Below are positions 29,237-62,660 of a stretch of DNA of 64,000 nt, piece after piece. The DNA is taken from NCBI GenBank assembly GCA_947627285.1, contig CANQVL010000005.1, positions 1 through 64,000 of the forward strand. Direction: 5' to 3'. The notes beneath the pieces are model-generated. The model worked only from the letters and a program-made list of their open reading frames with translations. It ran no database searches and was not told where the DNA came from. This DNA is from an uncultured Oscillospiraceae bacterium (GTDB taxonomy: Bacteria; Bacillota; Clostridia; Oscillospirales; Oscillospiraceae). A program made the position numbers and the translations under genes. Numbering within the stretch: the first letter of the stretch is position 1; each line of letters opens with the position of its first letter.

Positions 29237-29413
29237 TTCTTCCAAAAGGGCTTTGCCCTTTTGGAAGAAGGGGGGACGTGCGAAAAAATTTTCGGAAATG
29301 TCTGCGGACATTTCCGGAAATTTTTTCTGCTGTCGCACTGCGCGCGCCGCCGTAGGCGGCACACTTGCAAAACATAAGGTGATTTTTCCGACGTACATGC
29401 CTCCGGAAAAATA
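29237..29413 (+). repeat. Structured intergenic element, copy A
   Basis: Hairpin 1 is TTCTTCCAAAAGGGC (29237-29251), TTT, GCCCTTTTGGAAGAA (29255-29269). The block GACGTGCG follows. Hairpin 2 has arms 29283-29302 and 29307-29326 (20 bp, one G-T) with loop TGCG. Then come CTGCTGTCGC and CTGCGCGCGC, a small GCCGCC/GGCGGC hairpin (29346-29360), CACACTTG, and a constant 3' hairpin ATTTTTCCG (29382-29390) / CGGAAAAAT (29404-29412). It reads on the plus strand although both flanking genes are on the minus strand. This copy lacks the middle module of about 200 nt found in copies B and C. Confidence 0.85.
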
Positions 29414-29447
29414 TTTGATTAAGGGTTTTTGCCGACCGGAAAATTTT

Positions 29448-29475
29448 CGCCGCCCGTAATTTTTTACGGGCGGCG
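29448..29475 (-). terminator. Terminator of the DtxR-like gene
   Basis: CGCCGCCCGTAA (29448-29459) pairs with TTACGGGCGGCG (29464-29475); read on the minus strand the stem is followed by AAAATTTT. It lies just after the stop of the regulator gene. Confidence 0.7.
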
Positions 29476-29482
29476 AGGGGGG

Positions 29483-29863
29483 TCAGGGCTTCAGGTGGGA
29501 GTCGTAGTATTGGCGGAGCTTTGAGAAGGTTTCGGCGCTGATGTCGTGCTCTATTTTGCACGCCTCGCGGGCGGCGGTCTCGGGCTCGACGCCCAGGGCC
29601 TTGAGCATGTCCGTCAAAAGGACGTGGCGCTCGTAGATCCTCTCGGCGACCTCGCGCCCCAAGGGGGTGAGGTGGATGTCCCGGCGCTCGTCCACGTCGA
29701 TGTAGCCGGATTCGCGGAGCCTGCGCATGGCGATGGAGATGGTGGGCTTTGAGAAGCCCATCTCGGTGGCGATGTCGATGGAGCGGACGTACCCCATGCG
29801 GTTTTCCAGCATAAGTATTGTTTCAAGGTAGTCCTCGCCGGATTCGTGGATCTCCAATGCCAT
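29483..29863 (-). CDS. DtxR/MntR family metal-dependent regulator
   Basis: A 126-residue regulator: winged helix (about 1-65, SIDIATEMGFSKPTISIAMRRLRESGYI) and a dimerisation/metal domain (66-126) with the ligand-rich ERHVLLTDMLKALG and ACKIEHDIS. There is no SH3-like domain, which matches the short MntR type (manganese sensing) rather than iron-sensing DtxR or IdeR. No metal transporter is adjacent, so its targets lie elsewhere. The ribosome site AAGGAG is close (3 nt) to the ATG. Confidence 0.9.
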   Translation of the reverse strand: MALEIHESGEDYLETILMLENRMGYVRSIDIATEMGFSKPTISIAMRRLRESGYIDVDERRDIHLTPLGREVAERIYERHVLLTDMLKALGVEPETAAREACKIEHDISAETFSKLRQYYDSHLKP

Positions 29864-29889
29864 CCACTCCTTTTGCCAAAATTCGGGGT

Positions 29890-29924
29890 TTAAGCTGACG
29901 CGGGTTCGGCTCCCGTCAGCTTAA
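29890..29924 (-). terminator. Hairpin overlapping a stop codon
   Basis: TTAAGCTGACG (29890-29900) pairs with CGTCAGCTTAA (29914-29924). The outer end overlaps the stop codon of the P-loop gene at 29921. The T-run on the minus strand is poor, so it may be a partial terminator before the DtxR-like gene. Its core resembles the hairpin at 22931-22967. Confidence 0.5.
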
Positions 29925-30331
29925 AAATACCTCTTGATCCCTTCGGTGGCGGAGGACTCGTCGGCGCTGATGGTCATGGTGAACTTGACGCCCTCCCGGT
30001 TGGAGAAGCTGTCGCACCACGCCAGGAACTCCTCGGCCTCGTTGAGGGATTCGGTGCCCGCCAGCTTAAAAAGGCCGTCCATGAAGATGTGGGTAATATC
30101 GTAATTGCCGGCGCGCAGTCCGCTGAGGAAGCCCTTGAGGGCTGTGTAGCCGGCAAGCTTGTAATCCGAAAGCCTGATGAGGCGGACGCTCATGGGGACG
30201 TCGTAGCGGAGCGCCGCGTCGCGCTCGATACAGACGACATTTCCGTGCTCCTCTTCGGAAGCCTTGCGTACAAGCTCCAGAAGCTGCTTTGTTTTTCCGT
30301 GACCCTTCAGTCCCATTATGACCTTAACCAT
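29921..30331 (-). CDS. Small P-loop protein of unknown function
   Basis: A 136-residue protein starting VKVIMGLKGHGKTKQLLELV, where GLKGHGKT is a Walker A motif, with a plausible Walker B strand HIFMDG near residue 85. The sequence has no membrane segment and no recognisable second domain. Such minimal P-loop proteins occur in Clostridia with no assigned role. ATG 30331 is chosen because AAAGGAG lies 8 nt upstream; longer in-frame starts up to 30430 lie across the promoter at 30387-30415. It may be co-transcribed with the DtxR-like gene downstream. Confidence 0.75.
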   Translation of the reverse strand: MVKVIMGLKGHGKTKQLLELVRKASEEEHGNVVCIERDAALRYDVPMSVRLIRLSDYKLAGYTALKGFLSGLRAGNYDITHIFMDGLFKLAGTESLNEAEEFLAWCDSFSNREGVKFTMTISADESSATEGIKRYF

Positions 30332-30386
30332 AGGGAACACTCCTTTCAGTTTTGGGGTGAGGACAGAGCTGCTGCCTGTCATTGGT

Positions 30387-30415
30387 ATTTTACCATCTTT
30401 CCGGCGGTGATTCAA
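30387..30415 (-). promoter_or_regulatory. Promoter of the P-loop gene
   Basis: On the minus strand: TTGAAT (30415-30410), 17 nt, TAAAAT (30392-30387), 56 nt before the ATG at 30331. Confidence 0.75.
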
Positions 30416-30501
30416 CAGGAATTTTCGCAATTCAGAAAAATTTTATTTTTTCAGGAAAAAGCGGGGTAACAAGCGGTCACGGAGATGAATATTATGTTGT
30501 A

Positions 30502-30515
30502 GGCTCATATGAGCC
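30502..30515 (+). promoter_or_regulatory. 14-bp palindrome beside the ribosome site
   Basis: GGCTCATATGAGCC is a perfect palindrome ending 1 nt before AAGGAGG (30517-30523) of the collagen-like gene. It could be an operator or a translation-modulating hairpin. Confidence 0.45.
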
Positions 30516-30529
30516 CAAGGAGGATTTGG

Positions 30530-31492
30530 ATGAAAGCATCTGATTTATTTGACGCCAATGAGCCCTGCGGAGGGCAGGGAGCCGGAGGCTGCGGGGGAAC
30601 CGTGATAAACTGCGGCGGCTGTATGCCGCCGTGTCCGGGTACTCCCACCGTGTGTCCCGGACCCAGGGGACCCCAGGGCATACCCGGTCCCGTCGGTCCC
30701 ACCGGTCCCCAGGGTCCCCAGGGACCTCAGGGTGAGACGGGTCCCCAGGGACCTCAGGGACCCGCCGGTCCCACGGGGGCGATGGGCGCGACAGGCGCTA
30801 CGGGGCCCATAGGTCCCCAGGGACCTCAGGGTCCCGTGGGCGCTACGGGAGCCACGGGAGCGACGGGTCCCGCCGGTCCTGCCGGAGCCGCGGCGACGAT
30901 AGAGATCGGCACCGTGACCACGGGAGCCCCCGGCACGCCGGCGAGCGTGACCAACACGGGCACGGACACGGACGCCATATTGAACTTCGTGATCCCTCAG
31001 GGCGCGACGGGTCCCCAGGGTCCCGCGGGTCCTGCCGGAGCTACGGGACCTCAGGGACCGGCGGGGACTCCGGCGGTCACGGGGTACGCGGATTTTTACG
31101 CACTTATGCCGACCGATAACGCCGCGGTCATAGCTCCCGGAGCGGATGTGGCATTCCCCAACTCAGGTCCCAGCACCGGCAGTATCACCGCCGCGTCTGA
31201 CACCTCTTTCACCGTAGTGGACGCGGGGACGTACCTGGTGGTCTTCCAGGTGCCCATTACCCAGACGGGACAGCTCCAGCTTGCCGTCAACGGGGCGGGC
31301 GTGGCTTCCACCGTGGCGGGCAGGAACGCCACTTCTGACCAGATAGTGGGAATGAGCGTGCAGACGCTCTCCGCCGGCGACACCGTCGCCGTCAGGAACC
31401 CCACCGGCAACACCGGTTCTCTGACCGTGACGCAAAGCGCCGGAGGCAACGCCCCCGGCTCCGCGCACCTGATATTCGTTAGACTTGCGTAA
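30530..31492 (+). CDS. Collagen-like spore-surface (BclA-type) protein
   Basis: A 320-residue protein. A Cys- and Gly-rich head (about 1-45, six Cys) leads into Gly-X-Y repeats rich in GPQGPQ and GATGAT (about 46-125). A short non-collagen insert ([19 protein letters not shown]) interrupts them, a second short Gly-X-Y block follows, and the C-terminal domain of about 135 residues resembles the jelly-roll BclA C-terminal domain ([24 protein letters not shown] at the end). This layout is typical of exosporium hair filaments. There is no signal peptide, as for exosporium proteins made in the mother cell. ATG 30530 has AAGGAGG 6 nt upstream. Mother-cell sigma control is inferred. Confidence 0.88.
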
Positions 31493-31498
31493 AAAAAC

Positions 31499-31878
31499 TG
31501 CCCCAAAAGGGCTGTGCCCTTTTGGGGCAAAGGGGAACGTGCGGAAAACCCTCACGAAAGGTCTGCGGACCTTTCGTGAGGGTTTTCCTGCTGTCGCGCT
31601 GCGCGCGCTCGTCGTCGCTGAAGTCGCTTAACCTCGCCTCCTCGTCCTCACTGGCGTCACTTAACCTCGGGCTCCCGTTGGTCGCCCTCAGGCGTTGACG
31701 CCGCTCGTCCTCTCCCCAACAGGCTTTCGCCTGTCGGGGTCCCCCGATGGCAGGGCTCAGGCGCAGACTTCGCTCCTCCTCTCCCCACGCAATCATGATT
31801 GCGTGGGGACCCCAAAAAGGGTCACACACTTGCGCGACAAGAGGTGATTTTTCCGACGTACATGCCGCCGGAAAAATA
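31499..31878 (+). repeat. Structured intergenic element, copy B
   Basis: Hairpin 1: TGCCCCAAAAGGGC (31499-31512), TGT, GCCCTTTTGGGGCA (31516-31529). Block AGGGGAACGTGCG. Hairpin 2: arms 31543-31563 and 31568-31588, a perfect 21 bp around TGCG. Block CTGCTGTCGC then CTGCGCGCGC. The middle module has a 33-nt tandem repeat (31608-31640 and 31641-31673), a CCCC/GGGG hairpin at 31714-31739 and a perfect 28-nt palindrome at 31782-31809. Then CACACTTG and the constant 3' hairpin (31847-31855 / 31869-31877). It fills the gap between two convergent genes; nothing else is seen there. Confidence 0.88.
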
Positions 31879-62287: not shown

Positions 62288-62313
62288 CCGAAAAAGCCCG
62301 CCAGGGCTTTCAG
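62288..62313. repeat. Left arm of inverted repeat flanking element copy C
   Basis: A 26-nt segment containing AAAGCCC/GGGCTTT. Its reverse complement matches 62635-62660 at 21 or more of 26 positions, so copy C lies between inverted arms about 350 nt apart. Confidence 0.6.
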
Positions 62314-62315
62314 CC

Positions 62316-62591
62316 TGTCGGCAAAGGCCTTTGGCCTTTGCCGACAAGGGGAACGTGCGGGCAATTTTCTCTGAATTTTGCGAAATTCAGAAAAAATTGC
62401 CCTGCTGTCGCCCTGCGCGCGCCCTCGTCGTCGCGGAAGTCGCTTAACCTCGCCCCGCCGCAAGCGGCAGGGCTCAGGCGCGGACTTCGCTCCTCCTCTC
62501 CCCACGCAATCATGATTGCGTGGGGACCCCAAAATGCGCACACTTGGGCGACAAAAGGTAATTTTTCCGACGTACATGCCGCCGGAAAAAT
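62316..62591 (+). repeat. Structured intergenic element, copy C
   Basis: Hairpin 1: TGTCGGCAAAGGCC (62316-62329), TTT, GGCCTTTGCCGACA (62333-62346). Block AGGGGAACGTGCG (62347-62359). Hairpin 2: arms about 62359-62378 and 62383-62402 with one mismatch around TGCG. Block CTGCTGTCGC then CTGCGCGCGC. The middle module shares the 28-nt palindrome (62499-62526) exactly with copy B. Then CACACTTG and the constant 3' hairpin ATTTTTCCG (62561-62569) / CGGAAAAAT (62583-62591). The gap 62267-62692 holds only this element and its flanking hairpins. Confidence 0.88.
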
Positions 62592-62634
62592 ATTGGATAT
62601 GGGACATTACTCTTTTCTGGGGTTTGTCTATAGT

Positions 62635-62660
62635 CTGAAAGCCCGTCAGGGCTTTTTCGA
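62635..62660 (+). terminator. Terminator-like right arm of the inverted repeat
   Basis: AAAGCCC (62638-62644) pairs with GGGCTTT (62649-62655) and TT follows, giving a plausible terminator for the pullulanase transcript. It mirrors the hairpin at 62288-62313. Confidence 0.65.

What the first reader, a model, noticed from the sequence alone, without database searches (positions are those of the whole stretch)
29237..31878. Family of modular structured elements with compensatory stem changes (copies A, B and a distant copy C)
Copies at 29237-29413, 31499-31878 and 62316-62591 share an ordered plan: hairpin 1 with a 3-nt loop; block AGGGGAACGTGCG (GGGGGGACGTGCG in A); hairpin 2 always with a TGCG loop; CTGCTGTCGC then CTGCGCGCGC; a variable module; CACACTTG; and a nearly invariant 3' hairpin. 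Stem sequences differ between copies (hairpin 1 arms TTCTTCCAAAAGGGC, TGCCCCAAAAGGGC, TGTCGGCAAAGGCC; hairpin 2 stems share little sequence), yet pairing is kept almost perfectly on both sides. That pattern means structure is selected while stem sequence is free, as for a structured RNA, a cruciform target or a mobile hairpin element. All three copies read on the plus strand, independent of neighbouring gene direction. I do not recognise the family.
Basis: seen in the sequence. Interest (0 to 1): 0.85.

Follow-up and report, generated by a model that had tools for sequence, protein, structure and literature searches.

The report
Hairpin-built mobile elements duplicating gene terminators
A gut bacterium carries about a hundred short non-coding mobile elements built from hairpins whose two sides change together; they appear to be moved by a known type of jumping gene that inserts into the stop signals of genes and copies the whole signal.

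Summary
The anatomy is real and is one large family: 104 copies parsed in this genome, and model matches in 30 of 34 genomes of the genus. Hairpin-2 arms pair by Watson-Crick at 1949 of 1978 positions, with 81 distinct 5' arms.

The copies are best read as non-autonomous transposable elements (MITEs) of IS1182-type insertion sequences. Window copy C is absent from a sister species and is flanked by an 18-nt repeat (one mismatch) of the upstream terminator hairpin. Of 25 copies elsewhere with both ends recognised, 14 have flank repeats, 13 of them palindromic, against 0 of 116 mispaired controls. All 7 IS1182 copies with both ends found, one in this genome, have similar ends and exact 21-31-nt palindrome duplications.

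Orientation is not independent of genes: 85 of 94 copies follow a same-strand gene. Hairpin 1 probably serves as the replacement terminator (inferred).

No Rfam family reaches its cut-off. Open: why the arms change in concert, and whether the P3/3'-hairpin core, found in at least three genera, has its own function.

The parts
29237..29269 (+). Copy A, hairpin 1 (terminator-like stem, loop TTT)
29277..29282 (+). Copy A, conserved block CGTGCG
29283..29326 (+). Copy A, hairpin 2 (20-bp arms, loop TGCG)
29331..29374 (+). Copy A, P3 region: 5' strand 29331-29338, 3' strand 29367-29374; the strands are of different types and do not pair fully (chimera)
29383..29411 (+). Copy A, 3' hairpin (hp4)
31499..31529 (+). 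Copy B, hairpin 1, 6 nt after the end of the frame 30509-31492
31544..31587 (+). Copy B, hairpin 2
31592..31839 (+). Copy B, P3 (31592-31599 with 31832-31839) enclosing the long middle module
31848..31876 (+). Copy B, 3' hairpin (hp4)
62293..62310 (.). Copy C, left target duplication AAAGCCCGCCAGGGCTTT (upstream terminator hairpin)
   Evidence: empty site in G005
62311..62325 (+). Copy C, left terminal inverted repeat CAGCCTGTCGGCAAA, overlapping hairpin 1
   Evidence: 13 of 15 as in CAGTCTGTCGACAAA of the IS in G000
62316..62346 (+). Copy C, hairpin 1
62360..62401 (+). Copy C, hairpin 2
62406..62553 (+). Copy C, P3 (62406-62413 with 62546-62553) enclosing the long middle module
62562..62590 (+). 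Copy C, 3' hairpin (hp4)
62623..62637 (+). Copy C, right terminal inverted repeat (TTTGTCTATAGTCTG; other strand CAGACTATAGACAAA)
   Evidence: 14 of 15 as in CAGACTGTAGACAAA of the IS in G000
62638..62655 (.). Copy C, right target duplication AAAGCCCGTCAGGGCTTT

Best explanation
These are MITEs: short non-coding transposable elements moved in trans by IS1182-family transposases of the same genus. Steps shown by sequence: young copies end in IS1182-type repeats (near CAGnCTGTCGaCAAA or CAGTCTGTCAAAAAA); they lie in palindromes, often gene terminators; the palindrome is doubled on both sides, as at the IS1182 copies. Inferred: the transposase joins the element to both feet of the target stem-loop, and fill-in doubles it. 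Inferred: hairpin 1, which lies against the stop codon in most copies, then serves as the gene's terminator, the old terminator decays, and copies whose other end faces the gene are lost. Inferred: the arms stay paired because change is copied from arm to arm or between copies (template switching or conversion), together with selection against broken hairpins; exchange of modules between copies makes the chimeras.
For: Empty sites in G005 for copy C (18-nt repeat of the terminator, one mismatch) and for one other copy (10-11-nt repeat). Flank repeats with score >=12 in 13 of 177 G000/G005 copies against 0 of 529 mismatched pairings (two of the 13, L057 and L246, are the same insertion in the two species), and in 14 of 25 copies with both ends recognised against 0 of 116. 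Of these 14, 11 direct repeats are palindromes, 2 (L425, L490) are better read as inverted copies of a palindrome, and L482 is not clearly palindromic. 7 of 7 IS1182 copies with both ends found carry exact 21-31-nt palindrome duplications directly against the ends (8 of the 12 fetched IS loci were checked, and L383 had only one end recognised). A full-length 546-aa IS1182 frame lies in the window's own genome, with ends CAGTCTGTCGACAAA and CAGACTGTAGACAAA. Gene context of G000 copies: 55 '+-', 30 '++', 6 '--', 3 '-+' of 94, against 34, 161, 105 and 34 of 334 adjacent gene pairs in the window plus 400 kb of G005; '++' against '--' p = 7e-5. In 64 of the 85 same-strand copies hairpin 1 starts no more than 8 nt after the stop codon (one search lists). 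Hairpin 1 has a GC clamp and T-run in 73 of 104 copies (no control was run). In 33 orthologous pairs, changes in alignable hp2 stems are 24 two-sided Watson-Crick, 8 one-sided and 1 other. IS1272, an IS1182-family element, is published as targeting hairpins and terminators (PMC4923244, PMC5678879; passages read).
Against: Most copies show no flank repeat (164 of 177 below score 12; 11 of 25), so for them insertion is inferred from homology. Five copy-rich genomes (G005, G018, G019, G027, G033) gave no IS1182 match and G006 and G024 only weak ones; these are fragmented assemblies, and in G005 several listed end sequences lie near contig ends, but true absence is possible. I saw no likeness between element interior and IS interior (by eye only). 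Loop inversion, a mark of template switching, is not enriched: 1 of 33 pairs for hp1, about 6% expected. P3 is broken in several chimeric copies. One of the two clean empty sites has a 10-11-nt repeat that is not a whole hairpin. Elements of other genera share the 3' hairpin but end in CTCTGCGAGGC or otherwise, not in an IS1182-type end.
Confidence: 0.87

Rival explanations
1. A structured RNA made from the 3' end of genes: the P3 / internal loop / hp4 core is transcribed and bound by a protein or ligand, and transposition only spread it.
For: In 16 sequences from at least three genera the stems covary (62 two-sided cells against 21.8 +/- 3.2 in shuffles, 0 of 500) around nearly invariant motifs; the plus strand follows genes.
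Against: The rows were picked for P3 pairing. With P3 placed by its flanking motifs instead, 37 of 61 sites, or 14 of 26 distinct strand pairs, pair at >=7 of 8, against 150 of 610 mispairings: support, but weaker. Hairpin 1 looks like a terminator upstream of the core (73 of 104). G-U pairs are rare in hp2 (20 of 1978), unlike usual RNA helices (general knowledge, not computed). No Rfam match at cut-off. No transcript data.
Confidence: 0.18
2. A REP/RAYT-like system: hairpins mobilised by a Y1 (IS200/IS605-type) transposase.
For: Gene-flanking hairpins in high copy; two Y1 transposase matches in the own genome.
Against: No Y1 match in G005, G006, G011, G015 and G017, all with more than 50 element matches; flank duplications are not a product of Y1 transposition (general knowledge).
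Confidence: 0.03
3. Not mobile: terminators plus repeats that arose by local duplication and are kept as bidirectional terminators.
For: 55 of 94 copies lie between convergent genes; 48 candidate orthologous pairs in two species, 33 with both flanks.
Against: Clean empty sites and target duplications; ends like those of complete insertion sequences.
Confidence: 0.04

Closest known systems
IS1182 family of insertion sequences, incl. IS1272 (Furi 2016 PMC4923244; Wan 2017 PMC5678879; passages read)
   Same: Terminal repeats close to those of IS1182-family copies in the same genus; palindromic targets, often terminators.
   Different: The elements span 185-417 nt where both ends were recognised and no transposase gene was seen in them. 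Here the target palindrome is duplicated, whereas IS1272 is reported to delete or replace it without duplication; [quoted passage not shown]
Prokaryotic MITEs (review PMC10969869; passages read)
   Same: Short, non-coding, inverted ends, target duplications, intergenic, stable folds.
   Different: IS1182 does not occur in that review's text. Modular covarying hairpins and exchange of modules at orthologous places are not in the passages I read.
BOX, RUP and SPRITE repeats of Streptococcus pneumoniae (listing of PMC3049150; passages in PMC10969869)
   Same: Small interspersed repeats; SPRITE is described as terminator-like.
   Different: Compared by description only; no sequences were compared.
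Hairpins kept perfect by template switching (Monttinen & Loytynoja 2022, PMC8794818; passages read)
   Same: Multi-base two-sided changes in perfect stems.
   Different: Their material is RNA genes; loop inversion is not enriched here.

Membership tests
MITE of an IS1182-family element | Short and without a transposase gene | tested here: met
   Spans with both ends are 185-417 nt in 24 of 25 rows (the 25th, L397, is a wrong end pairing with a negative span); copy C inserts 327 nt
MITE of an IS1182-family element | Terminal inverted repeats matching an autonomous element | tested here: met
   Copy C CAGCCTGTCGGCAAA / CAGACTATAGACAAA against CAGTCTGTCGACAAA / CAGACTGTAGACAAA of the IS in G000: 13 and 14 of 15. 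In most old copies the right end is no longer recognisable (26 of 179 matched one tail pattern)
MITE of an IS1182-family element | Target duplication of the kind made by the autonomous element | tested here: met
   7 of 7 IS copies and 14 of 25 elements; null 0 of 116; 13 of the 14 palindromic
MITE of an IS1182-family element | Presence/absence between relatives at the same site | tested here: met
   two clean empty sites in G005 for G000 copies; only part of G005 was available
MITE of an IS1182-family element | Autonomous partner in the same genome | tested here: met
   G000:C11:57794-59209, 440 bits (cut-off 270). No match in five copy-rich relatives
MITE of an IS1182-family element | Moved by that transposase in trans | not testable with these tools
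   needs a transposition assay
IS1272-like IR-replacing insertion | Target stem-loop deleted or replaced, no duplication | tested here: not met
   palindrome duplicated
REP/RAYT (IS200/IS605) | Y1 transposase present where copies are many | tested here: not met
   no match in five copy-rich genomes
Any Rfam family | Score at or above gathering | tested here: not met
   (whole window, 0 hits). Below cut-off: best mir-451 at 30.9 bits (cut-off 66.5, E 4e-4) on hairpin 2 of copy B, an animal microRNA family, taken as a generic hairpin match; 4 weak hits in 5 relatives' loci
BOX elements | boxA/boxB/boxC sequences | not tested
   no BOX sequence was compared

The most novel reading that the evidence does not exclude
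The P3 / internal loop / 3'-hairpin core is a functional structure of Oscillospiraceae: near-invariant unpaired motifs on freely varying, covarying stems, read either as RNA or as folded DNA by a transposase or host protein. It has been joined to different transposon ends in different genera, while its stems are kept paired by arm-to-arm copying of DNA. That would be a mobile, structure-coded module recognised by shape. (Probability lowered from a draft 0.30 because the cross-genus rows had been picked for P3 pairing and the anchored test is weaker.)
Probability: 0.27. Interest if true: 0.82.

Novelty: new variant of a known kind. Interest (0 to 1): 0.62.

Why it matters
It shows a transposon type whose target is a shape, often the terminator hairpin, and whose insertion doubles that shape, the branch modelled in Wan 2017. 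It gives about a hundred natural replicates per genome in which hairpin arms change together between species with about 95% identical flanks, a good system for testing how perfect stems are kept. The elements appear to have become the 3' ends of many genes, so they should matter for transcript ends in these gut bacteria.

Tried and rejected
Y1 transposase as mobiliser: rejected. Rfam relatives: none at cut-off. Loop inversion as proof of template switching: seen by eye in single cases, not enriched when counted. Conversion between copies as the only source of new hp2 arms: of 29 changed orthologous pairs, the G005 arm occurs elsewhere among the G000 copies in 6 and the reverse in 7, so it explains at most part of what was seen. 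Phage origin: no exact match of the 3'-hairpin pattern in viral contigs. Papers: nine searches listed no description of this family; none of the 10 listed papers held 'Flavonifractor', so that search says little. The library lacks most subscription papers, so this does not prove it unpublished. I recall, from no call, that ISfinder gives IS1182 target duplications of up to about 60 nt.

Counting notes: 25 of 129 G000 and 18 of 96 G005 block matches did not parse and were dropped. Model searches score a capped number of candidates (150 per genome), so 148, 146 and the per-genome numbers are lower bounds, and long copies give two matches. In one search one row called 'empty' (L055) was a diverged element and one (L238 against L005) a partial element; both were left out. 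Hairpin-1 parsing takes the best hairpin in 75 nt and sometimes takes a host hairpin. The gene caller is a home-made codon score. In one search, 12 rows were found in 11 loci picked; the 2 rows of L440 were dropped. In one search, 6 sites had no P3 found (among them the Ca. Oscillibacter locus L456), and in the G042 loci the 'P3' pairings look like chance. In one search, 13 of the 24 misses are TGTTTTGC or CGTTTTGC sites where my anchor is one base off; I left them as misses.
Full report
What is there. The window's genome (2.81 Mb, 95 contigs) holds a large family: 84 matches of the central block, of which 83 distinct copies were recovered; 104 copies parsed with a looser block out of 129 block matches; and at least 148 matches to a covariance model built from 23 copies (150 candidates scored, and long copies give two matches). 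The plan is: hairpin 1; GGGGAACGTGCG; hairpin 2 with a TGCG loop; P3, an 8-bp stem enclosing TGCGCGC, a short hairpin or a long module, and ACACTT; AAAAGGTGAT; the 3' hairpin; and a tail.

Covariation. Hairpin 2 pairs at 1522 of 1540 positions in 81 copies with 67 distinct 5' arms, and at 1949 Watson-Crick plus 20 G-U of 1978 in 104 copies with 81 distinct arms. Shuffle and slide controls on 23 copies are clear. The 3' hairpin is nearly invariant there and says little by itself. In P3, TGTCGCGC goes with GCGCGACA and TGTTTTGC with GCAAAACA, but some copies are chimeras, window copy A among them.

Distribution. 32 of 60 genomes searched have matches: 30 of 34 in the own genus (none in G003, G007, G020, G026), one weak match in another genus of the family, and one genome of another family of the order. 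An exact 3'-hairpin pattern in named genomes gave 107 stretches, 80 listed, with the scan stopped at its limit: mostly uncultured Oscillospiraceae MAGs of a series named Lapin, also Pseudoflavonifractor gallinarum, Lawsonibacter, Dysosmobacter and Ca. Oscillibacter records. Viral contigs gave none.

Mobility. Window copy C is missing in G005: the two flanks meet there, and in our genome the 327-nt insert is bordered by AAAGCCCG(C/T)CAGGGCTTT, which at the empty site is one terminator-like hairpin after the upstream gene. A second copy is missing in G005, with a 10-11-nt repeat. Repeats flank 13 of 177 copies at a score that 0 of 529 mispairings reach, and the six best are whole hairpins of 27-35 nt. 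In loci from named genomes, 25 of 114 3'-hairpin sites had both ends recognised, and 14 of these had flank repeats against 0 of 116; 13 of the 14 are palindromic, two of them with the two copies inverted relative to each other.

The mover. Sequences like CAGACTGTYRACAAA lie about 60 nt from contig ends in several of the listed matches of relatives (list cut), as expected for a longer multi-copy insertion sequence. One such locus gave a weak IS1182-family match (19.7 bits). A family search then found IS1182 transposase matches in 20 of 34 genomes, 8 of them over the curated cut-off, including G000:C11:57794-59209 in the window's own genome. This IS ends in CAGTCTGTCGACAAA and CAGACTGTAGACAAA and is bordered by AACCACTCGTTAAACGAGTGGTT on both sides; 7 of 7 IS copies with both ends found have exact 21-31-nt palindrome duplications. 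The elements' two tail types resemble the two IS end types in the genus. Published IS1272 (IS1182 family) targets hairpins and terminators but is reported to delete or replace them; [quoted passage not shown]

Gene context. Of 94 copies with a gene called on both sides, 55 lie between convergent genes, 30 are '++', 6 '--' and 3 '-+'; 7 more had a gene on one side only, and 2 seemed to lie inside called frames. Adjacent gene pairs in the window plus 400 kb of G005: 34 convergent, 161 '++', 105 '--', 34 divergent of 334; that DNA itself holds only 5 parsed elements with both neighbours (3 '++', 1 '--', 1 '+-'), too few to test alone. Hairpin 1 begins a median of 0.5 nt ('++') or 2 nt ('+-') after the stop codon and overlaps the frame's end in 31 of 85; 73 of 104 have a GC clamp and T-run (no control). 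Since the target is a palindrome, insertion itself should have no orientation, so '++' 30 against '--' 6 (p = 7e-5) points to selection after insertion. That hairpin 1 terminates transcription is inferred.

Evolution. There are 48 candidate orthologous pairs with G005, 33 with both flanks. In those 33, hp2 arms are identical in 4, alignable in 14 and replaced in 15; in the alignable stems 24 changes are two-sided Watson-Crick, 8 one-sided and 1 other. The block differs in 10 of 33 pairs, the P3 5' strand in 17, the middle in 31 and hp4 in 15. Two-sided change at about 95% flank identity, with few G-U intermediates, suggests copying from arm to arm or between copies as well as selection; hp1 loop inversion is at the background rate, so classical template switching is not shown.

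Core beyond the genus. In 16 sequences, including Pseudoflavonifractor (3 rows) and Lawsonibacter (1 row), P3 and the inner stem covary (62 two-sided cells against 21.8 in shuffles) around nearly invariant unpaired motifs, and the 3' hairpin has A opposite C in 14 of 16. The rows were picked for P3 pairing, so I also placed P3 by its flanking motifs: 14 of 26 distinct strand pairs reach 7 of 8, against 150 of 610 mispairings. In P. gallinarum and in G042 the element ends differently (CTCTGCGAGGC) and I saw no hp2 of the genus type. So the core predates, or has been re-joined to, the IS1182-type ends. What it does is open.

Verdict. A real, large, mobile family; best filed as IS1182-type MITEs with an unusual modular, covarying anatomy.

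Noticed in passing
L069 (G000:C24), between P3 3' strand and 3' hairpin: One element copy carries a roughly 250-nt insert whose ends look, by eye, like IS200-type hairpins.
   Followed up: no
G005:C1:97394-97448; G002:C72:3372-3423; G002:C34:33985-34039: 52-55-nt stretches made of two facing IS1182-type ends with little between, perhaps minimal or excised elements.
   Followed up: no
L086 and L097 (G000, absent in G005 L271 and L250); L256 (G005, absent in G000 L029): A hairpin TTCAAAAAAGGGC-nnn-GCCCTTTTTTGAA appears as an extra unit before the element in one species and not in its sister, as if hairpins were added one at a time.
   Followed up: partly
L425, L490: The two palindromes flanking the element are better matched as reverse complements of each other than as direct copies.
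   Followed up: partly
31601-31820 and 62417-62538: Long middle module, classed as long in 25 of 104 G000 copies and 99% identical over 69 nt between B and C, much more uniform than the stems.
   Followed up: no
30509-31492: The frame directly upstream of copy B looks like a collagen-like repeat protein gene.
   Followed up: no
G005 contigs: Contig lengths of G005 (for example 249408, 97127, 48579) equal those of the named record series CANPYX01, an uncultured Oscillospiraceae MAG named Lapin-001__bin59.
   Followed up: no
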